From Actinocorallia herbida (GTDB lineage: Bacteria > Actinomycetota > Actinomycetes > Streptosporangiales > Streptosporangiaceae): a stretch of DNA of 64,000 bases. The translations under genes were made by a program, and so were the position numbers. Below the pieces are notes generated by a model. It had not been told where the DNA came from. It searched no databases and saw only the letters and a list, made by a program, of their open reading frames with translations. Location of the stretch: NCBI RefSeq assembly GCF_003751225.1, contig NZ_RJKE01000001.1:434001-498000 (forward strand), read 5' to 3'. Positions 49,635 through 64,000 of this stretch are shown here, piece after piece. Numbering within the stretch: position 1 is the stretch's first letter; each line of letters begins with the position of its first letter.

Positions 49635-50216
49635 ATGCAGAAATGGCAGGCCATCGGCGCGGGCGCCGCGCTCGTCCTGGGACTCGGCCTCACGGCGGTG
49701 ACGGCGCCCCCGGCGTCGGCGGCGCCCGGCGGGCTCACCGCCGAACCGTTCGGCCCCGCCTGCGCGTCCATCCCGGCGACCGGACCGGGCAGCCTCGCCA
49801 CGATGGCGACCCAGCCCGTCGCGACGGCCGTGGCCTCCCTGCCGTTCCTGTCGACGCTGAACACCGCGATCCAGACCGCAGGGCTCACCACCACCCTCAA
49901 CGCCGCCCCCGCGCTCACCGTCTTCGCCCCGACGAACGACGCGTTCGCGGCGATCCCGCAGGCCGAGCGGGACCAGCTCCTGACCGACCAGGCGGCCCTG
50001 GCCAAGACCCTCAACTACCACGTCGTCAACGGCCAGAAGACGACCGCCGACCTCCAGAACGCCACCCTCATCACCCTGGAGGGCAGCCCCGTCATCGTCC
50101 GGGGCAGCAACTACGACTACATGGTCAACGGCTCGAAGATCACCTGCGGCGGCATCCAGACCGCGAACGCCACCGTCTACGTCATCGACTCCGTCCTGGT
50201 CCCGCCCCAGACCTGA
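49635..50216 (+). CDS. Secreted fasciclin-domain protein
   Basis: This 193-residue protein has a signal peptide (cleavage near residue 30, ASAAPGG) and one fasciclin domain similar to mycobacterial MPT70/MPB70. Its segments are LTVFAPTNDAFAAIP, TLNYHVVNGQ and IQTANATVYVIDSVLVP. Cys43 and Cys171 probably form a disulfide. A GAGGGGG site precedes the ATG by about seven bases. It is secreted and may bind the surface or partner proteins. Its 3' end overlaps the convergent jetD gene by 35 bases. Confidence 0.9.
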   Translation: MQKWQAIGAGAALVLGLGLTAVTAPPASAAPGGLTAEPFGPACASIPATGPGSLATMATQPVATAVASLPFLSTLNTAIQTAGLTTTLNAAPALTVFAPTNDAFAAIPQAERDQLLTDQAALAKTLNYHVVNGQKTTADLQNATLITLEGSPVIVRGSNYDYMVNGSKITCGGIQTANATVYVIDSVLVPPQT

Positions 50217-51516
50217 CCCCTCCCTCGAACACGCGCGGCCCGGCCTCGCCCCGGGCCGCGCGTCCATGTCCGCCCACAGAGTTCGCCGCGTGCGCGCGCA
50301 GGTCCGAAAGCAGGGACGGGATCACAGATTCCTCGCTCAGGGCGACGCCCCTGGCCCGCATCACTTCCTGCAGCTCGGGGTCCCAGGGAGTCTCCTGTGC
50401 GCCGCCCTTGAGCGGCGGCCTGGAAACGGACCGCTCGGCGTCCGCGAGCCCTTGGAGGTAGTCCGTCGAGGACATCCGCCAAGGCGCCGCACCATGACGC
50501 GAGACCAGAGCCGCCGTCATCCGGATGCCAGGCCAGTCGAAATCCCCGTGGTAACGCAAAGAACCTCCGCAGAGGGCGATCCGTTCGGCGAGCTCGAGGA
50601 AGGCGACGGACGGCTGCCCTTCGGCGCAGACCAGGGGCGGGCAGGCCGGTCCCAGCTCTCTGGCCGCGCCGCCCAGGACCGAAGGGTTCTCGCACACGTG
50701 CACCACCGTGGCGTCAGGGCTGACGGGATGGCGGACCAGCTGGTCGAGGGTGACCCGCAGCGCGGTGCCGTGCCGGGCACCGCTCGTCATCCATTCGCCG
50801 AGGGCCTCGCCCCGCGCGGGCAGGTTGAGCACGAGCACGGTGCTGCTGTAGGCGTTCTCGGCGACGCCGAACCGCTCCCACAGGTCGCGCCGATCCTCCG
50901 CCGAATCGGGGGCCGCCGAACCGGCCCGGAAGGCGAGCGCGGCCAGCACGAGCCCGGAAAGCGGCCGGCCGGAGTCCAGCGCGTGGGCGTCGCCGGTCGC
51001 CTTGTCCGCGAGCTCGGGCAGGGTCGTCGCGTTGCCGTCGAGGAGCTCCAGGACGCGCACGGCGCGGGCCAGCCTGTCGGGGCGGCCCAAGAGCCGGGTG
51101 AGGGTTCCGTTGGACGTCGCGCGCAGTTCGCCGACCCAGGCGCGGTACCAGGCATGGGACGTCAGCTCGGTGGCTTCGGCGGTCGCGAGCAGCGCCGCGC
51201 GGGCCCCGGCCGCGGTGGCGGCCTCCGCACGGCGGTCGCGCAGGGGCCTGCCGTGCAGCTCGACCAAGACGTCGCCGAGCGCCATCCCCGTCCTGGCCCG
51301 GACCGCCGCGTCCAGTTCGCTCATCCGTACGCGGGCCGTCGCCCCCACCCGGAACCTCGGCAACGGACCGAGCAGCCCGACGAGCTCCCTGTGCGCCTCG
51401 GGAGAGGCGATCTCGACGGAGAGCGAGGCATGGCCGGACTCCAGGCGCTTCCTGGCCAGGGCGAACAGGTCGGCCAGGGTGGGGCGGCGCAGGCTGGAGA
51501 GCGAGTCGTTCTGCAC
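50182..51516 (-). CDS. jetD: Wadjet type II JetD nuclease subunit (TIGR02679, DUF3323-DUF2399)
   Basis: This 444-residue protein has an N-terminal arm domain and a C-terminal TOPRIM-type nuclease domain. The acidic residues are Glu276 (VHVCENPSV), Asp325 and Asp327 (YHGDFDWPGIR). In Wadjet, JetD cuts circular DNA that the JetABC motor has extruded, so plasmids are removed. GTG 51516 has GAGGAAGG upstream and lies 31 bases after the jetC stop. The last 40 residues (GGHGRAARGEAG...) look unlike the conserved domain and run into the fasciclin gene, so the C-terminus may be extended. Confidence 0.88.
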   Translation of the reverse strand: MQNDSLSSLRRPTLADLFALARKRLESGHASLSVEIASPEAHRELVGLLGPLPRFRVGATARVRMSELDAAVRARTGMALGDVLVELHGRPLRDRRAEAATAAGARAALLATAEATELTSHAWYRAWVGELRATSNGTLTRLLGRPDRLARAVRVLELLDGNATTLPELADKATGDAHALDSGRPLSGLVLAALAFRAGSAAPDSAEDRRDLWERFGVAENAYSSTVLVLNLPARGEALGEWMTSGARHGTALRVTLDQLVRHPVSPDATVVHVCENPSVLGGAARELGPACPPLVCAEGQPSVAFLELAERIALCGGSLRYHGDFDWPGIRMTAALVSRHGAAPWRMSSTDYLQGLADAERSVSRPPLKGGAQETPWDPELQEVMRARGVALSEESVIPSLLSDLRAHAANSVGGHGRAARGEAGPRVFEGGVRSGAGPGRSR

Positions 51517-51547
51517 GGCGGCCTTCCTCGGAGGCTGGGGGCGGGAG

Positions 51548-54500
51548 TCAGGCGGGCTCCTCGGCGCCGAAGAGGCCGATGGCGGAGGGGGCCCGGCGGG
51601 TGGGAGAAAAGCCGAGGAGGGACGAGGCCAGCTCCTCGTTGCCGGAGAAGCCCGCGCCGGAGTCGACGAGTTCGGCGCCGTCCCAGAGGATGAGCATCGC
51701 CGAGACGGTGTGGGCGAGTTTGTCGGAGTGCATGTCGTAATGGGCGGCGGCGGGAACCGTCTTGTATCGGATCCATAGGTCGTGGCCCGTCATGAAGGTG
51801 TCCAGGCCGTATTGGACGGTCAGGCCCAGAAGGTCGGGTTTGTACCTGTCGTCGATGCCGGCGAACGCCTCGTCCAGGGCGATCATCCTGGGGCAGTCCG
51901 GCTTCGCCGACTCGTACAGGGCGTTGGCCGCCGCGAACAACGGCAGGTGGATGGCCGCCGACTTCTCTCCGCCGGACATCAGCGAGTGCTGTTTGCGCGT
52001 CAGCCTCACCTCGTCCTGGCCGGGCACCTTCAACCGCAGCTCGAACGAGCGCCAGGAGCGGTAGTCCAGGACCGCGCTGAGGGCCTCCTTGTACGTCGCG
52101 CGAGGATGGGCGGCCCGGTGGTCGCGAAGCATCTGCCGTAGCGCGGCGCGCAGACGCCCGAGCTGGTCGCGGCCCAGGTCCGACAGCTCAAGGAGGGCCG
52201 ACACCTCCCGCTGAGCGTCGGTGACCCGGGGCGAGGCCACCCATCGGATGCCGACGGTCGTGCCGTTGGACATCGGCCGTGAGCGCGTGTCGGCGTCCAT
52301 CCGCTCCACGAGTTCCCGGGCGGTGTACACGCGGTCGAAGATCTCCTGGGACAGCTCGGCGAGGAGCTCGTCCTCCAGGACCCGGCGCTCCTGGTCCTCC
52401 AGCAGGAAACGCTGCTCCTCGGCACGCTCGCGGACCCGGGCGGCGAACTCGGCGACCGGGTGGCGGCCGTCGGGGTCGGCGACCCGGACGTAGACGAGCG
52501 CGTCGTCCGACTCGGTGTCGAGACGGTAGTCCTCCTCACGCTCGGCGAGGACCTCGCCGAAGGACTTCAAGGCCGTGTTCAGGCGCCGCCGGGAGTCCCG
52601 CCGCGCCTCCTCCCCGGCCGAGTGCCCCGTGGTGGCCGTATCGAGCGCGCGCACGAATGCGGCCGCGTCTTCCGGGACCACTCTTGCGACGGCCTCCTCG
52701 GCTTCCGCTTCCGCGAGTCCGGAGATGACGGCTTCGGCGGTGTCCTCGGAGGAGGCCCACCGGGTCGGATGCGGCCATGGCGGTGCTTCGGCCGGAACGC
52801 CCAGCACGGCCCGCAGTTCGGGCTCGGCGAACGGCCCGACTCGCCGGGCGGCCTCCAGCAACCCGCCCACCGCCTCCGCGAGCTGGGCGGCCAGCTGCCC
52901 GTGCAGGGTCTCGGCGCGGATCAGGCTCTCACGCGCGCTCTGCGCACGTGTGTCGGCGGCCGTCCACGCGGCCGACGCCTGCGTGAACTCGCCCTCGGCG
53001 ACCTCAAGCCGCTCAAGGATCGCCTTCAACGGGGCGCTGAGGTTGTCCTCCAAGGCGCTGAGCCGCTTCTCCAGCTCTTCCTGGCGGCCGGCGTTCTCCC
53101 GCAGCGAGGCGGATTCGGCCTCGGCCCCCAGGGCGGACCTGGTGATGAGCGCGTCCCGGCTCGCCACCTCGGCCTCGCCCGCGGCGACGGCCTGCTCCGC
53201 GGCGGCCCGCCGCTCGGCGCTGCGCAGGTGATCGGCGATCGCCCCCTGGACGACCTGGAGCTCCGCCCGCCCGGACGGCAGATCCAGTTCGCCTGCGACC
53301 AGCCGCAGCACGCGTCGCGCCTGCTCCGCGGCGGCCACCGCGGCGTCCGCCGCGATCGACGCCTCGGCGTGGACCCGGCGCGCGGCGGCGAGCAGCGCCG
53401 ACGCGGTGGCGACCTCGCCGAGGGCGGTGAGGACGGGGGCGAGTGAAGGCAGAGCGTCCTTGGCCTTGCGCAGGACCGCGAGGGCCTCCTCGACGTCCGT
53501 CAGCCGGTCGGCGAGCGCCGTGTCCTGCGCGTCCGCGCCGGCGATCAGCGCGTCGTGTTCGGCGATGAGCCGGGCCCGCCGCGCCGCCCGGTGCACCGGC
53601 CCGATGAACTCGGGCACCGCTTTGCGGCACGCGCCCACCTGGACGCCGTAGGTGAACCCGCCGTCCAAGCCGATGGCAGGGGCCGGCGTCCGCGGGCCCA
53701 CTTCCGAAGCCAGGGCCACTGAGCGCAGAACGCCCGCCAGCACGGCCTCCGGTACACGGTCCTGCTCTTCGGGCACGAGCACGTCGGCAAGAGTGCGTCC
53801 TGAAGGGCGCTCGGGCTCGGGCAGGGGCCGCAGATAGGCGTCGCTCTCCTCGGCCGAAAGCAGAGCAGGGATCACGGCCGGGTCCGGCGGGATCCAGGCG
53901 GTGAGAAGACCTGCCGCGTCCAGGGCGGCTTCCAGCGCGGCGCCTTCGCTTTCGGGAAGGTCGTCGGCGAACCGGACGAGTTCCCACAAGGGCCCTCCCG
54001 GGCGCTCTGCAGGACGGGCCGACCGGGCCGGATGCGAGGCTGGGGCATCCTGGGTCTGCGCGGCGATCCTGGCGCGTTCCTCGACCAGGAGGGCCCGGCG
54101 CTCGGCCGTCGCGCGCCTGGCGGCCCGCAGGTCGGCCCGCTCGTCGGCCAGCCTGCCGCGGCGCTCCTCGGCGAGGTCGGCGAAGACCGTCGCGAGGGCG
54201 GGGGCGCCGGGGCCGGAGACCTCCTGGAGCGCGCGCAGCAGAACCGCGGCGTCGTCCTCACCGACGGCATCCCAGCGCTCCGCCCAGGCTTCGAGTTCGC
54301 TGCGAACCTCACCCCTCGCGGTCTCGACGGCCTCCGCGGCCGCCGTGCACGCGTCGTCGGCCTCCTCCAGGCGCCCGCGCGAGGTCTCGGCGGTCGCTCC
54401 GGCGCGGTCGCGCTCGCCGTCCGCGGCCGCTACGGAGTCGAGCAGGGCGAGGACTCGCCTTACGCCTTCTTCCCGGGCCGTGACCCGGGCCTTCACTTCG

Positions 54501-55702
54501 GGCAGTTCGGCGTCGTCGTGCTCGATCCCGGCCGCCCGCGCGGCCCGCTCGGCGTCCGCGGCGGCCTCGGCGACGGCTTTCCTGCGATCCTCCAGCCGCC
54601 CGGCGAAGTCCGTCGCCTCCCCGCGCAGCGCGGCGAGCTGCTCCTCCATCGCCGCGAACGTCCTGCGCTGCCGGGCGAGGCTCTCCCTGCCGGTGCGCAC
54701 CCGCGACCGGAGCTCGTCGAGGTTCTCCTGGCTCCGGTAGGCCTCGTCCGAGCGCAGCGTCTTGAGCTCGCCCTCCAGCTCGTTCCTACGGCTCTCCGCA
54801 GAGTCCCGCTCCTCCAGCGCGGCGGTCTCGGCCTCCTTGGCCTCGGACTCCTGCCGGGCCGCCTTGCGCAGCGCCGCAGCGCGCTCGACCGCCTTGCGCG
54901 TCCGGTCGGCGACGAGATCGGCCTGGTGCCTGCCGCCCGCCTTCAGATAGCCGGTGTAGACGGCCAGGAAGCGCTCGGCGGCCCCGTCGGCGGCGGTGAG
55001 GTCCTCGCTGAGGCGCTGCACGGCCGAGAGGTTGTCGAAATCACGCGCGGCCCGCTCGACGAGGCCGTCGGAGACGGGGCTGAGCCCGGCCGTCAGGGTC
55101 GCCGAGACCTTCTCGGGGTCCAGGTCCTTGGCCAGCAGCGGGCGGCGCAGCGCGAGCAGGAGGTCGATGAGCTGGGTGTAGCGCTGGCGGCCCAGGCCGA
55201 ACAGCTCGGCGTCGATCGCCTCGCGGTACTCCGTCGCCGTCGCATAGGAGCACTCCGGGCCGAGCACGCCGCGCAGGTGCTTCTCGGTGAGCGGGCGCGC
55301 GTCGTCGGTGAGCAGCCCGAAGTCGACGCCGATCCGCTTGCGCGTGACGAAGAACGAGGTGTTCACCTTCGGCCGGTCCTTGTGCGCCCGCAACGCGACG
55401 ATCAAGGTGACCGTCTCGTCCTCCTGCGCGAACTCCATCCAGACGAAGCCGTATTCGGACTCCTGCCCCCGGTAGAGGAGGTTCGACTTCATCGTGCGGT
55501 TCTCGCCACTGAACGGGTCGAGCCTGCGGGCGTCGGTGACCCCGTCGAGTACGAAGGGGAACAGCACCTCGAGGGCCTTGGTCTTGCCCGAACCGTTGTG
55601 CCCGCGCAGCACGAGGCGTCCGTCGGCGAAGACGAACTCCTCGTCCACGTAGTCCCAGATGTTGACGAGTCCGGCGCGGGACGGACGGAATCGGCTGGTC
55701 AC
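51548..55702 (-). CDS. jetC: Wadjet type II JetC, SMC/MukB-like ATPase (TIGR02680)
   Basis: This 1384-residue SMC-like ATPase has Walker A GHNGSGKT at residues 34-41, long coiled-coil arms rich in Ala/Glu/Arg, and a central hinge-like part (about residues 500-680). Its C-terminal head has LMSGGEKSA (from about 1241) and Walker B MIALDEAFAGID (from about 1273). It is the motor that loads on and extrudes plasmid DNA. GTG 55702 overlaps the jetB stop by four bases; the frame stays open upstream, but that part only shadows jetB. The length fits the TIGR02680 family. Confidence 0.95.
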   Translation of the reverse strand: MTSRFRPSRAGLVNIWDYVDEEFVFADGRLVLRGHNGSGKTKALEVLFPFVLDGVTDARRLDPFSGENRTMKSNLLYRGQESEYGFVWMEFAQEDETVTLIVALRAHKDRPKVNTSFFVTRKRIGVDFGLLTDDARPLTEKHLRGVLGPECSYATATEYREAIDAELFGLGRQRYTQLIDLLLALRRPLLAKDLDPEKVSATLTAGLSPVSDGLVERAARDFDNLSAVQRLSEDLTAADGAAERFLAVYTGYLKAGGRHQADLVADRTRKAVERAAALRKAARQESEAKEAETAALEERDSAESRRNELEGELKTLRSDEAYRSQENLDELRSRVRTGRESLARQRRTFAAMEEQLAALRGEATDFAGRLEDRRKAVAEAAADAERAARAAGIEHDDAELPEVKARVTAREEGVRRVLALLDSVAAADGERDRAGATAETSRGRLEEADDACTAAAEAVETARGEVRSELEAWAERWDAVGEDDAAVLLRALQEVSGPGAPALATVFADLAEERRGRLADERADLRAARRATAERRALLVEERARIAAQTQDAPASHPARSARPAERPGGPLWELVRFADDLPESEGAALEAALDAAGLLTAWIPPDPAVIPALLSAEESDAYLRPLPEPERPSGRTLADVLVPEEQDRVPEAVLAGVLRSVALASEVGPRTPAPAIGLDGGFTYGVQVGACRKAVPEFIGPVHRAARRARLIAEHDALIAGADAQDTALADRLTDVEEALAVLRKAKDALPSLAPVLTALGEVATASALLAAARRVHAEASIAADAAVAAAEQARRVLRLVAGELDLPSGRAELQVVQGAIADHLRSAERRAAAEQAVAAGEAEVASRDALITRSALGAEAESASLRENAGRQEELEKRLSALEDNLSAPLKAILERLEVAEGEFTQASAAWTAADTRAQSARESLIRAETLHGQLAAQLAEAVGGLLEAARRVGPFAEPELRAVLGVPAEAPPWPHPTRWASSEDTAEAVISGLAEAEAEEAVARVVPEDAAAFVRALDTATTGHSAGEEARRDSRRRLNTALKSFGEVLAEREEDYRLDTESDDALVYVRVADPDGRHPVAEFAARVRERAEEQRFLLEDQERRVLEDELLAELSQEIFDRVYTARELVERMDADTRSRPMSNGTTVGIRWVASPRVTDAQREVSALLELSDLGRDQLGRLRAALRQMLRDHRAAHPRATYKEALSAVLDYRSWRSFELRLKVPGQDEVRLTRKQHSLMSGGEKSAAIHLPLFAAANALYESAKPDCPRMIALDEAFAGIDDRYKPDLLGLTVQYGLDTFMTGHDLWIRYKTVPAAAHYDMHSDKLAHTVSAMLILWDGAELVDSGAGFSGNEELASSLLGFSPTRRAPSAIGLFGAEEPA

Positions 55703-57042
55703 GGCTGCTCCTGAGCGGTGGCCCCGGCGAACAGGCCGATCTGGCCGTCCGGAGTGGGCAGGGCCTGGGTGATGTTGCGGTAGCGGACCGCGGCGGGCAG
55801 CACGAGGACGCCGCCCGGGACGGGCCGCACCAGGCGGAGGTCGGAAAGGAAGGCGAGCGAGGCGTCGAGAAGCCCCAGAGGGTCGGCCCGCCAGGCGGCG
55901 GTGAAGGAGTCGGCGCCGAACTCCGTGTAGAGCTCCTGCACCATCTGCTCCAGGCGGTGCCGCTCCACCAGCGGCAGTGTCTCGGCGGACACCTCCGGCG
56001 AGGCGAAGCGGGGGAGATCCCATGCCATGCCCCGGGCGAGGGTGTCTTCGGGGACGGCCTTGTCGAGCCGTGCACGCAGGGCCGCCTGCTCCTCGGCGTC
56101 GGACGGTCCGGCCGCCCGCCTGAGCATGCCGCCGTCGAGTGCGTCGGCGACCTTGCCGAGCAGCAGACCCGCCGCGCGGGCGAGCGCGCCCCGGCCCGGG
56201 AAAGGCCGGTCGGTGAAGGAGCCGGACGGGTCGATCAGCGAGACGCCCTCGGCCCGCCGCTCCACGACGGTGCCGGTGAGCCGGGCGAGGTTCTCGGCCA
56301 GGCCGTCGCGGCGCAGGACCGCCGCGGCCTCCGGATCGAGGTCGGCGTAGTAGACGACGGGGCGTTCCAGGACCATCCGGCGGACCCGGGCGGCTGCGGG
56401 GCCGTGCGGGTCCTCCAGGAGGCCCGCCGCGCCCGTCAGATGCTGGAGGGGCCGCGCGGGGCGCAGCAGGGCGGCGCAGATGTCGTGGTCGACGTCGAAC
56501 AGGGCGTCGCCCTCGGCCGAGCGCGCCCACGCCTCCACGGACCCGTCGGAGACGGCGAGGGCGTCCCGGTCGAGCAGCCAGCCGACGACGTCGACGACGG
56601 CGGCCTTGTGCGGGCCCTGGAGGGGGTCGTAGCCGAGCCCGTCGATCGCCTGGGCGGCCGGGGTGAGCGCCCGCACGATGTCGGTGAGGCTCACCTCGAC
56701 CCTTGATCGCTGGAAGGTGGACAGCACAAGGCACAGGTAGGCCAGCCGCCGCCGGTCGAACGCCCGCCCCGCCCGGTTGACGAACACCCGCCCCCGGCTC
56801 GGATCGAGCCCGTCGAGCCGCCGGACCAGCCGCACCTGACGGGTCGTCGCCACCAGCGTGTACCCGCACAGATCACGGAGATCCCTCGCCAGCAGATCCG
56901 CCCACGGAAGCACCCTGTCCAAGATCCCCGGCCGAGGATGCCGGGCCGTGATGAGTCCGTGGGAGAGCACGAGCCTTACGGCCGCCTGGTAGGAACCCAG
57001 ATCGGCGTCGGCGACATCGGCGGCGGCGCGCGGTTCAGCCAC
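55699..57042 (-). CDS. jetB: Wadjet type II JetB, MukE-like subunit (TIGR02678, DUF2398)
   Basis: This 447-residue protein follows the TIGR02678 pattern: LVLSHGLITARHPRPGILDRVLPWADLLARDLRDLCGYTL near the start, a Tyr/Ala-rich YYADLDPEAAAVLRR middle and a C-terminal winged-helix-like FLSDLRLVRPVPGGVLVLPAAVRYRN. It would bridge JetA and the JetC heads. GTG 57042 is the only plausible start before the conserved region. Its first bases repeat the end of jetA. The gap to jetA is 74 bases. Confidence 0.9.
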   Translation of the reverse strand: MAEPRAAADVADADLGSYQAAVRLVLSHGLITARHPRPGILDRVLPWADLLARDLRDLCGYTLVATTRQVRLVRRLDGLDPSRGRVFVNRAGRAFDRRRLAYLCLVLSTFQRSRVEVSLTDIVRALTPAAQAIDGLGYDPLQGPHKAAVVDVVGWLLDRDALAVSDGSVEAWARSAEGDALFDVDHDICAALLRPARPLQHLTGAAGLLEDPHGPAAARVRRMVLERPVVYYADLDPEAAAVLRRDGLAENLARLTGTVVERRAEGVSLIDPSGSFTDRPFPGRGALARAAGLLLGKVADALDGGMLRRAAGPSDAEEQAALRARLDKAVPEDTLARGMAWDLPRFASPEVSAETLPLVERHRLEQMVQELYTEFGADSFTAAWRADPLGLLDASLAFLSDLRLVRPVPGGVLVLPAAVRYRNITQALPTPDGQIGLFAGATAQEQP

Positions 57043-57116
57043 GGGCGCGCTCCGGGATCTCCGGACCGGCCCAGGTCGGGTGCGGCCACCCGGGGACGCC
57101 GACGGTGGGGCGTGGT

Positions 57117-58655
57117 TCAGCCACGGGTGCGCTCCAGGGTCTCGATCTCCAGGGCGAAGCCGGGGAGGTGGAGGGTGCCGCCGGGGATGCGGACGATGTC
57201 GCCGGTCTCGGCGGGGCGCAGGCGCAGGACGACGATGTCGTCGGCGCCGGTGCCGGAGGACAGGCGGCCGGAGATCACGGTGCGGGCCTCCAGGGCCTTG
57301 GTGAGGAGGCGCAGCAGGACCCTCGTCTCGTCCTCGCCCAGCTCGCGCCCCACCGGGCCGTCGTCGGCGAGGGCGCGGGCGGCCGCCCGCTCGGCGGCGC
57401 GCTCGGCGACCTGGCGGCGGCGCAACTCGGCCCGCGCCCCGGTGTCCGCGCGGACGGGCTGGGGCGCGCCGGGCCCGGCGGGCCGGCCCGTCCGGAACGG
57501 GGTGAGGGCGATCTCGACGCCGGGGGAGTCCCACCAGCGGGTGCCCTCGTCGATGCGCTCCTCATCGTCGTAGGCGCCGCCGAGGTGGCGCGCGGAGGAA
57601 AGGTTGAACGCGGCGGTCGCGAGGGCGTGCGCGGCGTCCTCGTCGGGCGCGCGGACCAGCCAGGACGCCAGGTGCCGCAGCTCCGAGGCCCGGTTCACCC
57701 CGCTGCGACCCGCCTCGCTGAGCTGGCGCAGCAGCGCGATCACCGCGGAGACCGCGGTGCGCGTCGCCGAGTGCAGCTCGGTGACGCCCGAGCGCCCGTC
57801 CGTCCCCGCGACGAACCAGCTCCGCAGCCCCCGCCAGCGCTGCTCCCAGTCGGCCATCCGCGCCCCCGCCTCCAGCAGCGGCCTCTCATCGGCCTCGGCC
57901 GCCCGCGTCAGCATCGTGTAGACGCCGGACTCCTCGACCTCCCGCACGGCCTGGTCGAGCCGCGGCAGGTACCGGTCAAGGTCGTCCATGAAGTCCCGCA
58001 TGTGCGCGAGCAGCGCGTTCTTGTACCGCAGGAACAGCTCAGGCGAAGCGTCCGTCATGCTGACGATCTCCCCGAGCGTCACATGGAACCGCGCCGACCG
58101 CCGCCCCATGTCCTTGACGGCCTCATCCAGCCGGCTGAGCCGCCGCAGCACCTGCCGCCCGTCCCCCGACCGGTTGGCCCGCGCCAGCGCCCGCAGATCC
58201 TCCAGCACGTCCGAGAACGCCAGCCGAGACAGGTTCACATCATGAACCTGAGCCCCCAGCAACTCCTCGACCAGCGTGTACGCCCGATACCCCAGCTCGG
58301 AGAACTGGTACACCGACTGCCGGTTCCGATATCCCGCCAGCGACCCGGCCCGCGACACGTCGTCATGCCGATGCAGCAGCCCATCGGCCGCCAGCGAGTC
58401 CAGCCGCTCCCGCAGCAGCACCCCCTCAAGCCGAGGCGCCTCCTCGTAACCCTCGGAGAGCTCCCGCAGCACCGAGGCGACCTCGTCCACCCCCACCTGC
58501 ACCCGATGCCGAGACCGAAGCCGATCGATCCCCCTCAACACCCACAGATACCCCCCGGCCTCGTCTCTCCGAACGAACTGCAGCAGCCGCAACCGATCCC
58601 CGACCGCCAGGGAGTCCAACCCCCACCCCCGCGGCCCACCCGTACCCTCATTCAT
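57117..58655 (-). CDS. jetA: Wadjet type II JetA, kleisin/MukF-like subunit (TIGR02677, DUF2397)
   Basis: This 512-residue protein has an N-terminal winged-helix-like region (GDRLRLLQFVRRDEAGGYLWVLRGIDRL). A helical middle carries the TIGR02677 hallmark HVTLGEIVSMTDASPELFLRYKNALLAHMRDFMDDL, and the C-terminal beta domain ends LPGFALEIETLERTRG. It is the kleisin that closes the JetC ring. ATG 58655 was chosen because GATACT lies seven bases upstream, giving a leaderless start; an in-frame ATG at 58703 is less likely. It is the first gene of the four-gene defence operon. Confidence 0.9.
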   Translation of the reverse strand: MNEGTGGPRGWGLDSLAVGDRLRLLQFVRRDEAGGYLWVLRGIDRLRSRHRVQVGVDEVASVLRELSEGYEEAPRLEGVLLRERLDSLAADGLLHRHDDVSRAGSLAGYRNRQSVYQFSELGYRAYTLVEELLGAQVHDVNLSRLAFSDVLEDLRALARANRSGDGRQVLRRLSRLDEAVKDMGRRSARFHVTLGEIVSMTDASPELFLRYKNALLAHMRDFMDDLDRYLPRLDQAVREVEESGVYTMLTRAAEADERPLLEAGARMADWEQRWRGLRSWFVAGTDGRSGVTELHSATRTAVSAVIALLRQLSEAGRSGVNRASELRHLASWLVRAPDEDAAHALATAAFNLSSARHLGGAYDDEERIDEGTRWWDSPGVEIALTPFRTGRPAGPGAPQPVRADTGARAELRRRQVAERAAERAAARALADDGPVGRELGEDETRVLLRLLTKALEARTVISGRLSSGTGADDIVVLRLRPAETGDIVRIPGGTLHLPGFALEIETLERTRG

Positions 58656-58888
58656 CGTCCCCAGTATCGCCCTCCCCACCGACGCCCCCGCCCCTTTTTC
58701 CACAGGTCACACCTCGTGCGTGTGCCGGACGGGCAGGTGGGCCCGGACGGCTTGCCGGTGGATCTTGGATTTGGCAGGCTTCAACCGGTAAGGGCGGAAA
58801 CTCCATGTGGGCCTGCGAGGGTGCGCGAGGCGGTCCGCGTGGATCTCGGCAGGGCTCGCCGGCCGATCGTCATGAACTCGGGAAGACG

Positions 58889-59485
58889 ATGCATCCCTCC
58901 TCGGTACCCCGGCAGGTCCCGGCCGTGCGCACGCCGGAGTCATGGATCCGCCGGGCCTGGCGGCTGAGGCCGCCGGGGGCCGCGAGCGGCACGGTGACCA
59001 TCGCGGTCCTCGCGTACGCGGACGCGACGATGTGGGACCTGGGGGCGGTGCTCCTCGGCGCCGCGCTCTCCGTCGTCGCTTTCGTGTGCTGGGTCGGCGG
59101 TCTAGCCTCCTCCAAGCCGCGCATTCTCCCGGACGACCGGTTCATCGCCGCGGCCCTCGTCCCCCTGCTCGCCTTCTACGTCCTGGGCGTCGCGCTCCTC
59201 ACCGACTGGCCGACTCGCGCCGCCACCTTCGTCTCCCGCCCCTTCCTCGACCGCGTGGCGGATACGGCCCCGTCCGACGGCCCGGCTCTGGCCGGCCTCT
59301 TCTACGTCCGCTCCACCGGGTCCGAGGACGGTTTCGTATGGCTCGACACCGGAACCATCGACCTCGACCTGTGCGACCTCGTCCGACTCCCTCCGGGCAC
59401 CGACCCCGAAGACGTCGAGCTGACTTCTCCGCCCACCGACTACACCCACCTCACCGGCCCGTGGTACTCCGCCTGCACATTCTGA
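58889..59485 (+). CDS. Unrecognised membrane protein
   Basis: This 198-residue protein has three hydrophobic spans (roughly residues 32-47, 51-70 and 83-102). An external C-terminal domain follows with FYVRSTGSEDGFVWLDTGTIDLDLCDLVRLPPG, containing two cysteines (CDLV and the C-terminal YSACTF) that could form a disulfide. The ATG at 58889 was preferred; a start at 58805 is possible. It is divergent from jetA and lies between defence genes, but no defence role can be shown. Confidence 0.6.
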   Translation: MHPSSVPRQVPAVRTPESWIRRAWRLRPPGAASGTVTIAVLAYADATMWDLGAVLLGAALSVVAFVCWVGGLASSKPRILPDDRFIAAALVPLLAFYVLGVALLTDWPTRAATFVSRPFLDRVADTAPSDGPALAGLFYVRSTGSEDGFVWLDTGTIDLDLCDLVRLPPGTDPEDVELTSPPTDYTHLTGPWYSACTF

Positions 59486-59525: not shown

Positions 59526-59790
59526 GTGAACCCGCCCCCGGGATTCTTCGAGTCCTTGACCGCCGCCGCGGTGGCCCGCACGACAGTGCACGACCCCGTG
59601 CTCCTGCTGTGCGACGAGCCGACGGGCGATCTCGCCTCGGAGAACTTCGCGAGAATCATGGACCTGCTGCGCTCTTCGGTCGACGGAGACCTCGCGGAGG
59701 TCCCGGGGTCCGGCGGCCGCGGCCATCGCCGACCGGGCACGGCGGGTGGCTCGAGGTCAGCGCATCAGCCGCCGTTCGCCGGAATCAGGT
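59526..59790 (+). pseudogene. Frameshifted remnant of an ABC transporter ATPase
   Basis: The frame from 59526 encodes VARTTVHDPVLLLCDEPTGD followed by LASENFARIMDLLRS, which corresponds to the Walker B and D-loop region of a LolD/MacB-type ATPase. The normal continuation (GPAAAAIADRARRVARGQRIS) appears one frame over, from about 59698. The Walker A half is absent, and the Cys before DEPTG replaces the usual Ala. The 3' end overlaps the convergent DUF2075 gene. It is the decayed tail of a once complete gene. Confidence 0.75.
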
Positions 59791-61648
59791 CTGCCAGGAA
59801 AGTCTGGGTTTCGGGGTCGGTGGAGTAGATTCTGGTTCCTTTCATGCCGCGAGTGAGCAGAATTCGATAGATGTTCAGGGCGAGCGGAAGGTAGCGGTCG
59901 CGATCGAGGTGCATGAGGTCCTTGTCATGGCTCTTCCCTGGGCGGGCCTCCCAACGGTCTCCCCTACGGACCAGATCACCGCCCATGATGACGCCGCCGT
60001 AGTCGTATTCGAGGCCCTGCGCGGTGTAGACGCAGCCGATCTGTCGATGCCCGTTCCGGCCGGTCGCCCAGAACTGGGAAACGGGTGCTTCCGCGGTCGC
60101 TCGACGCGCGTTCCATGGCGCCGACCACCCGTGACGGACGCCGGCGTCGTCGTCCCACTCGATGGCCACGTCCTCGGGGAGGGGGTCGCGGGCTTCGCCC
60201 CAGGGCCAGCAGAACCCGGCCGCGATACGGGAGGGACTTCCCCTGTCCACATGGGAGTCGATCCAACTCTGCAGCTGCCGGGGGTCGCGGGAGGCGCCGA
60301 GGTCGTAGTCCGCGCCGATCCAGGGGCTCGGCGTCTCGTAGAGAAGGTCGTTGATCCAGCCGCCGTAGGCGCGGGAGCCACCGCAGCGGAAACAGCCCGA
60401 CAAGGAGATCATCTCGAACTCTGCTCTTTGATGTCGGGCATGGTCTCCGATCTCCTCGACCGTGACTCCTTCCTTCGGCCGGATCACCTGACGTTCGTCG
60501 AGAAACACCACGACCGCCTGCGAGCGCCCGATGATGTGATTCAGGGGCCCGGAACCCGGCGGCCTCCAGATAAGGCGTTGGCCTTCGTCCAGCAGCACCA
60601 CGCGCCGAGATGCTCCGCCGGGGCTCAAGGCCGTGTCGGTACCGCGGAACAGGTCCCTTGCGCCTTCGACGCCTGCGGCGGCCTGCTGCATCTGTTTCCG
60701 CAGCGTGCCGGAAGCACTCAGGTACAGCGGACTCACATCTGCGCGTCCTGCCAGATGGGCCAGGACACGAGTGGCGATCACCGTCTTGCCGCTTCCAGGG
60801 CCCCCGCCAACGGCGATGACGGCCTTCTGGCCAGAGCGCAGTGCTCGGTCGATGGCCGCATTGATCTTCAGGAGGGCCTCCTGCTGATCGCCGATCAGGA
60901 TGAACGCACTGTTCTTCTCAAGGACGGAGCTGAGGCTGTCGAGCATTTTCCGCCCGGGTCGCCAAACGATGTCGGTCATCGCCGAGACCTGTCGTTCGTG
61001 TGGCGGGCGGTGCCCGGACAGGCCTAGTCGTTTTCTGAGTGCTTCTTCAGGCACGTCGGCCTGCAGGGCGGCTTTGCCCAGAACGGGGATCTCGGTCTGT
61101 CCTCCGCTGAGGCTCGCGGTCTCCTTGGCTTCGGCATTGTGGAGGAGCACGACTCCCCGGCACCTGAGATCGGCCGAAGGCGACCAGTTCTCGATGAATG
61201 CGAGATAGGCCTTGACCTGGTTAACCGGGTGGACCGCCTCGACCCCGTCCGAGCGGAGGACTCGTAGATCCGACAGCACCGTGGTGTCGGTCCACTGCTT
61301 CAGTTCGACGATGGTCAAGACCGATCGCCCGTCCGGGGCCGACGACAGCAATAGTGCGTCGAATCGGCTGGAGCCACCGGGCGTGCCGTACTCGAGGTAG
61401 ATCGTCCAGTCGGCGAGCCCCGCCCGCTCGCACAATTCGACGAGCGCCGGCCAGCTGTTCCGCCAGCTCTGGGCCTCCGAAAAGCCCACGTCGCCGTATC
61501 CCGCGGCCGCATAGCGTCGCGTGCACCGGGCGACGAACTCGTCGGGGGCATCGGCCAGATGCCGCTTCAGTTCGACGACCCGCCCTGCCCACACGAAGGA
61601 ATCCACACCGTTTCGGTTACCCCGCTCCGGCCGATCGATCATGGACAC
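59765..61648 (-). CDS. DUF2075 (Schlafen group 3-like) helicase with nuclease-like N-terminus
   Basis: This 627-residue protein has an N-terminal PD-(D/E)xK-like nuclease core: Glu86 (YLEYGTPGG), Asp97 (RFDALLLSS) and Glu115/Lys117 (TIVELKQW). A superfamily 1-type helicase follows, with Walker A GGPGSGKT (282-289), Walker B VVLLDEGQRL and a C-terminal TAQGLEYDYGGVIMGGDL motif with Tyr and Gly typical of DUF2075. The GTG at 61648 has GGAGG ten bases upstream. It lies between a Wadjet operon and an Lhr-like helicase, so it is a good candidate for an antiviral nuclease-helicase, not yet proved. Confidence 0.85.
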   Translation of the reverse strand: MSMIDRPERGNRNGVDSFVWAGRVVELKRHLADAPDEFVARCTRRYAAAGYGDVGFSEAQSWRNSWPALVELCERAGLADWTIYLEYGTPGGSSRFDALLLSSAPDGRSVLTIVELKQWTDTTVLSDLRVLRSDGVEAVHPVNQVKAYLAFIENWSPSADLRCRGVVLLHNAEAKETASLSGGQTEIPVLGKAALQADVPEEALRKRLGLSGHRPPHERQVSAMTDIVWRPGRKMLDSLSSVLEKNSAFILIGDQQEALLKINAAIDRALRSGQKAVIAVGGGPGSGKTVIATRVLAHLAGRADVSPLYLSASGTLRKQMQQAAAGVEGARDLFRGTDTALSPGGASRRVVLLDEGQRLIWRPPGSGPLNHIIGRSQAVVVFLDERQVIRPKEGVTVEEIGDHARHQRAEFEMISLSGCFRCGGSRAYGGWINDLLYETPSPWIGADYDLGASRDPRQLQSWIDSHVDRGSPSRIAAGFCWPWGEARDPLPEDVAIEWDDDAGVRHGWSAPWNARRATAEAPVSQFWATGRNGHRQIGCVYTAQGLEYDYGGVIMGGDLVRRGDRWEARPGKSHDKDLMHLDRDRYLPLALNIYRILLTRGMKGTRIYSTDPETQTFLADLIPANGG

Positions 61649-61748
61649 CGCCCCACCACCTCCGGGCGACAATTTATGCGGGCCCACCGACAGAATGGCT
61701 TCGCCGAATTCGGCGACCAGGCGGAAGCCACGGTCTCACCTGCGGCTC

Positions 61749-63839
61749 TCAGCGGTCCACCAGGAAGCGGACCGGTTCTTCCAGGACTGCTTCGGCATGG
61801 GGGAGGTCGGCGAAGCGGGTGGCGAGGGTGGTGAGGGCGAGGCGGCGGGGGAGGGCCTCGCTGAACTTCAGGCCGCGTAGAGCCTCCTCATCGACGTGGG
61901 GGAGGACGAGGTGAGCGGCTGAGGTGGCGGTGCGGAAGGCACCGACGGCGGTCTCGGGGGCAAGGCGGATCCAGACGTCGTCGATGCGCTGGGACTCGTC
62001 GGCGAGGGAACCGAGGGTGGAGGCGAGGACGGCGTTGGTGCGGAAGCCGGCCCAGGTGTACCAGCGCAGGTCGTGGTCGGTGCGGCGGACGACGGTGCCG
62101 CCGGGGTGGACGGTGGGGAGGGCGTCTTCGCGGGCCTCGGCCAGGTGGGCGGTGGCGCGGCGGGTGAGGGAGACGGGTGGGTCGGCGCCCAGGAGGACCT
62201 CGCGGCAGGCGCGGGTGAGGGCGTAGGAGGCGCCGGAGAGGCCTGGGGAGTACCAGCGGGCCTTGCCGCGCAGGTCGGAGGGTTCGACGAAGCAGCGGCG
62301 GCGCTTCCAGTCGATCCAGGTGACCTTCCAGCTGCGGCCCGCCAGCAGGAGGACGCGCGGGCCCTCGACGGCCTCGGTGAGCAGCATCGGGTCGGTGCGG
62401 CCGATCTCCTGCCGGCCGGAGATGACGGTGAACTCGGGCGGCGCGGTGAAGACCGCGGTCATGCCCATGAAGTGGCGGCGCCCGAACCGGGCCTCGGCCT
62501 CGGGGCCGATGAACAGGAACTCGCCGTCCCGCTCCAGGAAGCCCTCGTTCACCAGGTGGGCGACGATCGGCTCAGCGCTCCGGTCGAACGGTGCCAGGCC
62601 ATTCCACGACTGAGCCCAGAGCCCGCGCCCGATCTTGTTCTCCTGGAGCGCGAGCCCGAGCACCTGCTGGGCGACGATGTGCCGCGGCTCCGGCGGTGCC
62701 AAGACGGGCTCGACGTACCCGCGCCCCCACAGGAGCAGCAAGGCAGCCGCTTCGACCAGCGAGTCGAGGTCGAGCGCCAGGAAGAGGCAGTTGCGCACCG
62801 ACCCGGCCCGCCGCCCGGTCCGCCCGAGCCGCTGGAGGAACGACGCGACGCTGGAAGGCGCGTTGATCTGGATCACCCGGTCCAGGTCCCCGACGTCGAT
62901 CCCCAGCTCCAGCGTGCTGGTCGAGACGATGACGCAGTCCCGCCCCGAAGCGAACGCCTCCTCGGCCCGCCGTCTCTCGTCCACCGACAGCGAGGCATGG
63001 GACAGGAACGTGGTGACGTCCCGCGCCCGCAGCGCCGCCCCCAGCTCCTCCACGAGCTGCCGAGAGTCGCAGAACACCAGCCGCTTCTCACCCCGGTGCA
63101 GCGCCGCGATCACCTTCGCCGCGTTGGCGACGGACCCGACGTAGTCGAGTTCGATCTCCCCGGGCGGCGGCAGCACCGGCGTGCCCACCACATCCGGTGC
63201 GACCACGGCCCGCGGCCGGGAGCCGCGCGAGGATCCCTGCAACCACTCCATCAGCTCTTCTGGATTCCCGACGGTCGCCGACAGCCCCACCCGCTGGATC
63301 GGCCGCCCCGCCACCCGGCTGAGCCGCTCCAGCACCGCGAGCAGATGCCACCCCCGGTCGTCCCCGGCGAACGCGTGTACCTCGTCCACGACGATCGCCC
63401 GCAGCCCCGAGAACACCGTCCGATGGTCGACGTTGACGCTCACCAGCATCGCCTCCAGCGATTCCGGCGTCGTCAGCAGGATGTCCGGCCGGTCCCGCAG
63501 CAGCGCCCGCCGCCGCGAGGAGGTCACGTCCCCGTGCCACAGCCCGACCCGCCGCCCCACCCACCCGCAGTAGGTCTCCAGCCGGGGCAGCAGGTTGTTC
63601 AGCAGCGCCTTGATCGGGCACACGTACAGGACCGAAAGCCCCGTCCACCGCTCCCGTTCCATCGCCGACAGCAGCGGGAATACCGCTGCCTCGGTCTTTC
63701 CTCCCGCGGTCGGCGCCAGTAGCAGCGCGTCCGACCCACCCATGACGGGCCCGACCGCCTCCCGCTGCAACGGCCGCAGCGCGGGCCACCCGAGCGTGTT
63801 GACGATGTGGTGAACCAGCACGGGCGAGAGATCGTCCAT
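61749..63839 (-). CDS. Lhr-like DEAD/DEAH-box helicase (BrxHI-like)
   Basis: This 696-residue superfamily 2 helicase has Walker A APTAGGKT (42-49), DEVH (152-155), LSATVGNPEE, STSTLELGIDVGDLD and the arginine motif QRLGRTGRR. An Lhr-type C-terminal part follows (IGRTDPMLLTEAVEGPRVLLLAGRSWKVTWIDWKRR). Similar short Lhr-like helicases occur as BrxHI in BREX-related loci. ATG 63839 lies 14 bases after the stop of a gene whose end may be a BrxD-type ATPase. The pair is therefore likely to be a two-gene or larger defence unit that continues outside the window. Confidence 0.88.
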   Translation of the reverse strand: MDDLSPVLVHHIVNTLGWPALRPLQREAVGPVMGGSDALLLAPTAGGKTEAAVFPLLSAMERERWTGLSVLYVCPIKALLNNLLPRLETYCGWVGRRVGLWHGDVTSSRRRALLRDRPDILLTTPESLEAMLVSVNVDHRTVFSGLRAIVVDEVHAFAGDDRGWHLLAVLERLSRVAGRPIQRVGLSATVGNPEELMEWLQGSSRGSRPRAVVAPDVVGTPVLPPPGEIELDYVGSVANAAKVIAALHRGEKRLVFCDSRQLVEELGAALRARDVTTFLSHASLSVDERRRAEEAFASGRDCVIVSTSTLELGIDVGDLDRVIQINAPSSVASFLQRLGRTGRRAGSVRNCLFLALDLDSLVEAAALLLLWGRGYVEPVLAPPEPRHIVAQQVLGLALQENKIGRGLWAQSWNGLAPFDRSAEPIVAHLVNEGFLERDGEFLFIGPEAEARFGRRHFMGMTAVFTAPPEFTVISGRQEIGRTDPMLLTEAVEGPRVLLLAGRSWKVTWIDWKRRRCFVEPSDLRGKARWYSPGLSGASYALTRACREVLLGADPPVSLTRRATAHLAEAREDALPTVHPGGTVVRRTDHDLRWYTWAGFRTNAVLASTLGSLADESQRIDDVWIRLAPETAVGAFRTATSAAHLVLPHVDEEALRGLKFSEALPRRLALTTLATRFADLPHAEAVLEEPVRFLVDR

Positions 63840-63853
63840 CGGGAGCCCGCCCG

Positions 63854-64000
63854 TCAGAGATCGAGGTCGATGTCGTCGGCTGCCGCCGCGCTGCGCTCGG
63901 CCTCGTTCAGCTCGGCGGACGAGAGGGTGAGCGCGTAGTGCAACCGCGGATCGAACTCCGAGAACTCCTCGACCCGGTCCAGCACGTCGGCGACGAGCTT
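63854..64000 (-). CDS. C-terminal end of a possible BrxD-type ATPase
   Basis: Only the last 48 codons and the stop are inside the window; the start lies beyond position 64000. The visible protein reads KLVADVLDRVEEFSEFDPRL, then HYALTLSSAELNEAERSAAA, ending in an acidic tail. Genes directly upstream of BrxHI-like helicases usually encode a P-loop ATPase of the BrxD (DUF2791) family, and the acidic end fits, but no ATPase motif is visible here. The assignment rests on context. Confidence 0.5.
   Translation of the reverse strand, partial: KLVADVLDRVEEFSEFDPRLHYALTLSSAELNEAERSAAAADDIDLDL

What the first reader, a model, noticed from the sequence alone, without database searches (positions are those of the whole stretch)
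50182..58655. Complete type II Wadjet anti-plasmid operon
Four same-strand genes in the order jetA (DUF2397), jetB (DUF2398), jetC (SMC-like TIGR02680) and jetD (DUF3323-DUF2399) are all full length. Walker A, signature and Walker B motifs in JetC and the acidic TOPRIM residues in JetD are intact, so the system looks active. jetB and jetC overlap by four bases. Wadjet itself is known; this is a clean actinomycete copy.
Basis: partly seen in the sequence, partly recalled or inferred. Interest (0 to 1): 0.8.

Follow-up and report, generated by a model that had tools for sequence, protein, structure and literature searches.

The report
Ordinary Wadjet operon beside BREX defence
The stretch carries a complete, intact-looking four-gene plasmid-cutting defence system of a known kind, next to a second known anti-phage system; the more interesting point is that many of its close relatives have lost the DNA-cutting gene while keeping the other three genes intact.

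Summary
The finding is right. Four minus-strand genes (jetA 57117-58655, jetB 55699-57042, jetC 51548-55702, jetD 50182-51516) match type II Wadjet profiles in order; jetB and jetC overlap by four bases; JetC ATPase motifs are intact, and JetD E276, D325 and D327 are invariant in 21 JetDs. One shortfall: JetB scores below NCBIfam's TIGR02678 cut-off (105 vs 125 bits), though DUF2398 and PADLOC JetB2 match well. The JetD structure check was inconclusive (pLDDT 51).

The genome is 9.8 Mb, genus Actinocorallia (inferred). Directly upstream, reaching past the window's end, lies a complete type 2 BREX system: a defence island. JetD has a 38-residue read-through tail.

The unexpected part lies in relatives. 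Of 63 close loci in the same family with intact jetA, jetB and jetC and enough downstream DNA, 41 have no jetD beside them. Shared flanking DNA and a few jetD remnants point to repeated loss at one site. JetABC there stays under purifying selection, and 21 of those genomes have neither Pfam JetD family anywhere. A nuclease-independent role for type II JetABC is plausible but untested.

The parts
57117..58655 (-). jetA (DUF2397 / TIGR02677, kleisin), 512 aa from ATG 58655; an in-frame GTG at 58703 gives 528 aa
   Evidence: phmmer to the chain named JetA of PDB 9qe0, E=3e-11
55699..57042 (-). jetB (DUF2398 / TIGR02678, KITE), 447 aa from GTG 57042
   Evidence: (below TIGR02678 cut-off); start supported by relatives whose jetA stop overlaps the same TGGCTGA start
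51548..55702 (-). jetC (SMC ATPase, TIGR02680), 1384 aa from GTG 55702, overlaps jetB by 4 bases
   Evidence: phmmer to the chain named JetC of PDB 9qe0, E=9e-66
55580..55603 (-). JetC Walker A GHNGSGKT (residues 34-41)
51959..51982 (-). JetC signature motif LMSGGEKS (residues 1241-1248)
51851..51886 (-). JetC Walker B and following residues MIALDEAFAGID (residues 1273-1284)
50182..51516 (-). jetD (DUF3323 + DUF2399 TOPRIM nuclease), 444 aa from GTG 51516
50689..50691 (-). JetD Glu276, predicted TOPRIM metal ligand
   Evidence: invariant in 21 sequences
50536..50544 (-). JetD Asp325-Phe-Asp327, predicted TOPRIM DxD
   Evidence: invariant in 21 sequences
50182..50298 (-). JetD codons 407-444 and stop: read-through tail beyond the profile end, non-coding-like codon GC
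50231..50263 (.). 13-bp perfect GC hairpin inside the jetD tail, probably the old 3' untranslated region of jetD
   Evidence: local fold including flanks -32.2 kcal/mol; no T-run, so the terminator scan found nothing
57035..57124 (-). duplicated jetA/jetB junction leaving a 29-codon mini-ORF between jetA and jetB
   Evidence: sequence; relatives
59765..61687 (-). neighbour: Schlafen group 3 type helicase, 640 aa
   Evidence: PF09848, 202 bits
61749..63839 (-). neighbour: brxHI, BREX helicase, 696 aa
   Evidence: PADLOC BrxHI 1069 bits
63854..64000 (-). neighbour: 3' end of brxD (435 aa, runs past the window to position 65161 in window numbering), preceded on the same strand by pglZ, pglY, pglX and pglW

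Best explanation
A complete type II Wadjet (JetABCD) system in an Actinocorallia genome. By analogy with studied Wadjets, two JetC ATPase motors joined by the JetA kleisin and JetB extrude loops on circular DNA; when the motors meet on a small circle they activate the TOPRIM nuclease JetD, which cuts the plasmid. Shown here: gene content, order, profile matches, intact ATPase and TOPRIM residues, and co-variation of JetD with JetC in relatives. Inferred: expression, assembly, loop extrusion, cleavage and plasmid defence in this host. It sits beside a complete type 2 BREX system and a Schlafen-type helicase, a defence island.
For: Profiles of all four subunits in order; overlap and starts; motifs; E276, D325 and D327 invariant in 21 JetDs; JetA and JetC match chains named JetA and JetC of PDB 9qe0; window versus the A. 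rifamycini operon gives dN/dS of 0.22 for jetA, 0.23 for jetB and 0.44 for jetC; JetC and JetD identities correlate at r=0.93 over 27 loci; adjacent BREX. The mechanism is taken from passages of the review PMC10586767 (section 7 read) and from passages of PMC12647877 on type II nvJET.
Against: JetB is under the TIGR02678 cut-off. JetD carries a 38-residue read-through tail through a hairpin that could impair it; one other JetD (L060) also reads 444 residues. The structure model was unusable. No expression or plasmid data.
Confidence: 0.93

Rival explanations
1. The operon is a Wadjet by descent, but this copy is no longer a working nuclease system: the JetD tail disturbs it, and JetABC is kept for a nuclease-independent job, as may be the case in the JetD-less relatives.
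For: 41 of 63 close intact JetABC loci lack jetD; the window JetD has lost its ancestral stop; JetABC under purifying selection in JetD-less pairs.
Against: All columns invariant among 21 JetDs are kept; codon GC pattern of residues 1-406 is normal coding; another JetD (L060) also reads 444 residues.
Confidence: 0.12
2. Not a plasmid-defence operon but a chromosome-organising MksBEF-like condensin with an accessory TOPRIM protein.
For: The P. aeruginosa MksBEF complex is assumed to act on chromosomes (passage in PMC7083940); the review speculates that MksBEF came from Wadjet.
Against: JetD adjacent and intact; type II profiles throughout; neighbouring BREX; in C. glutamicum the JetD-containing MksBEFG had no role in chromosome folding (abstract and passages of PMC7083940).
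Confidence: 0.05

Closest known systems
Type II Wadjet nvJET of Neobacillus vireti LMG 21834
   Same: Type II system with JetA, JetB, JetC and JetD that cleaves circular DNA in vitro (passages of PMC12647877). JetC and JetA of the window match the chains named JetC and JetA in PDB 9qe0/9qe1; that these are nvJET is my inference, the call names no organism.
   Different: Actinobacterial; JetB and JetD of the window find no solved relative by sequence; JetD tail; hinge shape not tested here; no activity tested for this copy.
EptABCD / JetABCD of Mycobacterium smegmatis
   Same: Actinobacterial Wadjet whose mutation improves plasmid uptake (passage in PMC10586767).
   Different: Not compared by sequence here; its assignment to type II is from recall.
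MksBEF of Pseudomonas aeruginosa
   Same: Motor complex related to Wadjet and named without the nuclease; comparable with the JetD-less relatives found here, not with the window copy.
   Different: Belongs with type I-like complexes (recalled); the window operon has JetD and type II profiles.
Type 2 BREX (Pgl)
   Same: The neighbouring operon has pglW, pglX, pglY, pglZ, brxD and brxHI on one strand.
   Different: PglY is under NCBIfam's PglY cut-off (914 vs 1700 bits) though 1291 bits in PADLOC; separate system, not part of Wadjet.

Membership tests
Wadjet type II | JetA with DUF2397 / TIGR02677 | tested here: met
Wadjet type II | JetB with DUF2398 / TIGR02678 | tested here: met
   DUF2398 166 bits over cut-off 26.9; PADLOC JetB2 484 bits; TIGR02678 105 bits, under its cut-off 124.65
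Wadjet type II | JetC SMC ATPase of TIGR02680 with Walker A, signature, Walker B | tested here: met
Wadjet type II | JetD with DUF3323 + DUF2399 and TOPRIM acidic residues | tested here: met
Wadjet type II | Acidic residues clustered in the folded TOPRIM domain | tested here: inconclusive
   AlphaFold2 from three sequences, mean pLDDT 50.8, below 50 over 263-308 and 319-444
Wadjet type II | Gene order jetA-jetB-jetC-jetD on one strand | tested here: met
Wadjet type II | Protection against plasmids, cleavage of circular DNA | not testable with these tools
   needs an assay
BREX type 2 (neighbour) | pglW, pglX, pglY, pglZ, brxD, brxHI together (gene list recalled; profile names from calls) | tested here: met
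   PglY below its NCBIfam cut-off
MksBEF-like stand-alone condensin | No MksG/JetD nuclease | tested here: not met
   jetD present

The most novel reading that the evidence does not exclude
Type II JetABC has a function that does not need its nuclease. In the family to which the window belongs, jetD has been lost again and again from the same chromosomal site while jetA, jetB and jetC stayed intact and under purifying selection, so the motor alone may silence or compact extrachromosomal DNA, or organise the chromosome, and the window operon is a JetD-bearing member of a clade in which the nuclease is optional.
Probability: 0.45. Interest if true: 0.65.

Novelty: new member of a known kind. Interest (0 to 1): 0.38.

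Why it matters
The operon itself adds one more, well preserved, type II Wadjet to a group already known to be common in Actinobacteria (at least one Wadjet in 42% of genomes, passages of PMC10482375). What is worth following is the natural experiment around it: closely related species with near-identical JetABC that differ in having or lacking JetD at one site. Comparing them would show directly what the SMC motor does without its nuclease, a question raised for MksBEF but, in the papers I could search, not for type II Wadjet.

Tried and rejected
JetD as a foreign insertion rather than a lost gene: thought less likely because JetD identity tracks JetC identity (r=0.93 over 27 loci) and because some JetD-less loci keep pieces that resemble jetD's 3' end: L086 (11 residues, 9 identical to the JetD-bearing relative), L092 and L082 (8 residues, 6 and 5 identical; there they form the end of another gene), and L120 (a 61-residue ORF directly after jetC, JetD match 14.4 bits, E=0.013). 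These pieces are short, so single regains are not excluded.

A replacement effector in the jetD slot: the first genes after jetC were listed for the 41 JetD-less loci (whose middle part was cut) and judged by eye from their first 40 residues, without clustering; no one gene recurs throughout. A gene of one kind recurs in five (L099, L108, L119, L121, L122), and in one subclade (seen in full in L082 and L092) a gene that looks to me like a peptidase occupies the slot; neither was tested by profile.

A JetD docking surface visible as positions conserved only where JetD is present: none found (JetA 0, JetB 0, JetC 1 column against a shuffled mean of 0.03, maximum 1).

JetD in phage records or viral contigs: none. 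On plasmids, JetC relatives occur in 22 records, 16 of them Streptomyces; the two regions opened, both on linear plasmids, have all four genes. JetD against solved structures: no credible match by single sequence or profile. JetB: none. The literature searches listed no paper on JetD-less type II Wadjet that I recognised as such; I saw passages of five papers only and the library holds only open-licence PMC papers, so this does not prove absence.
Full report
What is there. On the minus strand of the window lie jetA 57117-58655, jetB 55699-57042, jetC 51548-55702 and jetD 50182-51516. Profiles of NCBIfam, Pfam and PADLOC identify all four as type II Wadjet subunits, in order and near full length. 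The weak point is JetB against TIGR02678: E=4e-30 and 105 bits, but the curated cut-off is 124.65; DUF2398 and PADLOC JetB2 are clear. jetB and jetC overlap by four bases. JetC has GHNGSGKT, LMSGGEKS and MIALDEAFAGID; JetD has E276, D325 and D327, all invariant in an alignment of 21 JetDs from the same family (21 of the 35 JetD reading frames listed, window included, one of the 35 cut by a contig end). JetC and JetA match chains named JetC and JetA in PDB 9qe0; JetB and JetD have no credible sequence match among solved structures.

Where it is. The window is positions 434001-498000 of a single 9.8-Mb contig. The same-genus genome G001 has a contig of 1,405,409 bases carrying the same locus as Actinocorallia populi NZ_PVZV01000001.1, which has that same length, so the genus is Actinocorallia; this is inferred. 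dnaA lies at 9.12 Mb, more than 1.1 Mb away even if the chromosome is circular; whether it is linear or circular was not determined.

Surroundings. Upstream of jetA are a small plus-strand ORF without family, a Schlafen group 3 helicase (59765-61687) and brxHI (61749-63839). Beyond the window, on the same strand, follow brxD, pglZ, pglY, pglX and pglW: a complete type 2 BREX system, with PglY under its NCBIfam cut-off. Next to it are an HTH/DUF5753 gene and a DDE transposase gene. Among the three genomes of the genus that are held, PglX occurs in two and is not found in G001. On the other side, jetD converges on a fasciclin-domain gene 49635-50216 and overlaps its end by 35 bases.

Two small oddities of this copy. 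JetD runs to 444 residues. Of the 33 other complete JetD frames, 28 read 401-428 residues and five are longer (L131 438, L060 444, L144 450, L150 452, L143 479; starts are approximate). Codons 407-444 have GC by position 0.84/0.76/0.71 against 0.74/0.55/0.90 for codons 1-406, and include a perfect 13-bp GC hairpin. This looks like a lost stop codon and read-through of the old 3' untranslated region. L060 has a similarly long end after the last conserved motif. Second, jetA and jetB are separated by a tandem copy of their own junction: several near relatives (for example L056, L061, L078, L080, L072, L102) have jetA's stop inside jetB's first codons (8-base overlap), whereas the window has that motif twice, 82 bases apart, leaving a 29-codon ORF.

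How it should work. From passages of the review PMC10586767 and its section 7, and passages of PMC12647877 on the type II complex nvJET: paired SMC motors extrude loops on a circle, meet, and switch on the JetD nuclease. For this copy only the parts list and motif conservation are shown.

The unexpected result: relatives without the nuclease. A scan of genome contigs with JetC gave 13 relatives: six Planotetraspora, two Microbispora, two Sphaerisporangium, one each of Streptosporangium, Actinomadura and Actinocorallia. By tblastn only two of these 13 loci carry JetD (L002 and L008); L004 has only 324 bases after jetC. In the genomes of those 13, DUF2399 is present in 4 (G297, G298, G302 weakly, G303) and in none of the other 9. 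I then searched 297 genomes of the window's family. JetA matches at E<=1e-60 occur in 94 genomes and DUF2399 in 168. Of the JetA rows I took over 97 (two second fragments of the same genes left out): 81 are close to the window (52% identity or more). Of these 81, 23 have DUF2399 within 15 kb, 31 lie in genomes with no DUF2399 at all, and 27 lie in genomes that have it, but not within 15 kb among the rows shown; for four of the 27 (G060, G152, G192, G259) the place was not in the shown part, and several others are split by contig ends.

All 81 close loci were fetched (and the window). Eighteen were dropped because a contig ends, a gene is broken or not wholly matched, or less than 1.8 kb follows jetC; 16 of the 18 show no JetD and two do (L127, L135). 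Some of the 16 look decayed rather than cut (for example L090, L094, L098, L110, L111). Of the 63 kept, 22 have jetD and 41 do not. A JetD profile from 29 sequences, run over six-frame ORFs of 40 residues or more without filters, found nothing in the 57 loci without a tblastn JetD, apart from a 14.4-bit C-terminal remnant directly after jetC in L120 and a chance-level hit in L079. Walker A and SGGEK are present in 41 of 41 JetD-less and 22 of 22 JetD-bearing JetCs; so is Walker B (the first Walker B pattern, was too strict and found none in either group).

Of 16 more distant JetA rows (42-46%), 11 have DUF2399 adjacent; I fetched only these 11, so they are a chosen set; the other five have it only on another contig, and their JetA loci were not examined. 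One further locus, L062 (G004), was fetched and left out of all counts: it shows the opposite pattern, JetD with only fragments of JetA, JetB and JetC before it.

Loss rather than gain. On a FastTree tree of 68 loci (63 plus 5 intact distant ones) the JetD state changes at least 13 times; 500 label shuffles average 21.4 with a minimum of 13; if JetD is never regained, 22 losses are needed. JetC and JetD identities correlate at 0.93 over 27 JetD-bearing loci. Nine pairs of related loci, one with and one without JetD, were aligned: in eight the DNA beyond jetD is shared; in the ninth (L063/L081) nothing after jetC is shared. In one search I compared 17 pairs (the eight plus nine more, not independent of one another): in all 17 the DNA 3' of jetD is found after jetC in the JetD-less locus, from 28 bases to 4.6 kb after the jetC stop. 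In three of the 17 the shared stretch begins inside jetD's last codons, most clearly in L086 (9 of 11 residues identical).

Selection. Pairwise dN/dS (NG86) for 14 JetD-less pairs: JetA 0.07-0.28, JetB 0.08-0.32, JetC 0.19-0.50; for 9 JetD-bearing pairs: 0.09-0.24, 0.14-0.29, 0.13-0.50. So JetABC is constrained alike with and without JetD. Limits: the pairs were picked by me from the tree; some losses may be recent, so part of the branch was evolved with JetD present; and L120's remnant shows that at least one loss in the deep JetD-less clade is young. No alignment column marks JetD absence beyond chance, which also means no sign of a freed JetD-docking surface.

A nuclease in trans? Of the 31 genomes without DUF2399, 4 have the other JetD C-terminal family PF09983 (JetD_C) and 27 have neither; 26 of the 31 are at least 90% complete and at most 5% contaminated. 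Of these 31, 24 are among the 41 kept JetD-less loci and 21 of the 24 have neither family; the other 17 of the 41 are in genomes with a DUF2399 gene elsewhere. Unknown nucleases cannot be excluded.

How wide is it? In 394 genomes of the class, full-length DUF2397 (400 or more profile positions) with no DUF2399 anywhere occurs in 10 of 31 carriers in the window's family and 7 of 51 outside it, so it is commoner in, but not confined to, this family. Gene intactness was not checked for these.

Literature. Wadjet in 42% of Actinobacteria and 7% of other bacteria: passages of PMC10482375. [quoted passage not shown] a passage there says MksBEF of P. [quoted passage not shown] C. glutamicum MksBEFG acts on plasmids and not on chromosome folding: abstract and passages of PMC7083940. 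A passage of PMC10123090 says that deleting mksG has an effect on plasmid copy number similar to deleting mksB or mksF; this argues against a nuclease-free role in that type I system. In the searches I recognised no paper describing type II JetABC without JetD.

Verdict. The finding is correct and ordinary as a Wadjet record. Its interest comes from the neighbouring BREX system and, more, from the repeated absence of JetD in close relatives that keep JetABC.

Noticed in passing
window 59765-64000 and L019/L050 (G000:C1 493.8-513.6 kb): Complete type 2 BREX (brxHI, brxD, pglZ, pglY, pglX, pglW) directly upstream of the Wadjet operon on the same strand, with a Schlafen group 3 helicase between; the window end cuts brxD.
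   Followed up: yes
41 of 63 kept close loci in the family, for example L080, L078, L102, L073: Intact type II jetABC without jetD, apparently lost at the same chromosomal site, JetABC still under purifying selection.
   Followed up: partly
window 50182-50298: JetD lost its usual stop codon: a 38-residue tail reads through a 13-bp perfect GC hairpin and overlaps the convergent fasciclin-domain gene.
   Followed up: partly
window 57035-57124: Tandem copy of the jetA/jetB start-stop overlap, 82 bases apart, leaves a 29-codon ORF between jetA and jetB; L073 and L074 also show gaps of 86 and 101 bases with a similar motif repeated.
   Followed up: no
L082 15353-16009, L092 13359-13994: In a subclade of genus g46 the jetD slot holds a gene that looks like a peptidase (by eye, no profile run); its last codons align with the last codons of jetD in L130.
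   Followed up: partly
L062 (G004:C102): Opposite pattern: a JetD with only fragments of JetA, JetB and JetC before it.
   Followed up: no
L052 (G001:C5): A. populi carries a second, divergent JetABC (JetA 27%, JetC 37% identical) although its genome has no DUF2399 match; what follows that jetC was not examined.
   Followed up: no
window 58868-59485: Plus-strand ORF divergent from jetA, with long hydrophobic stretches, no match in Pfam, NCBIfam or PADLOC.
   Followed up: no
plasmid records NZ_CP109482.1 and NZ_CP108391.1 (L152, L153): Complete type II jetABCD on large linear Streptomyces plasmids, with transposase genes nearby.
   Followed up: no
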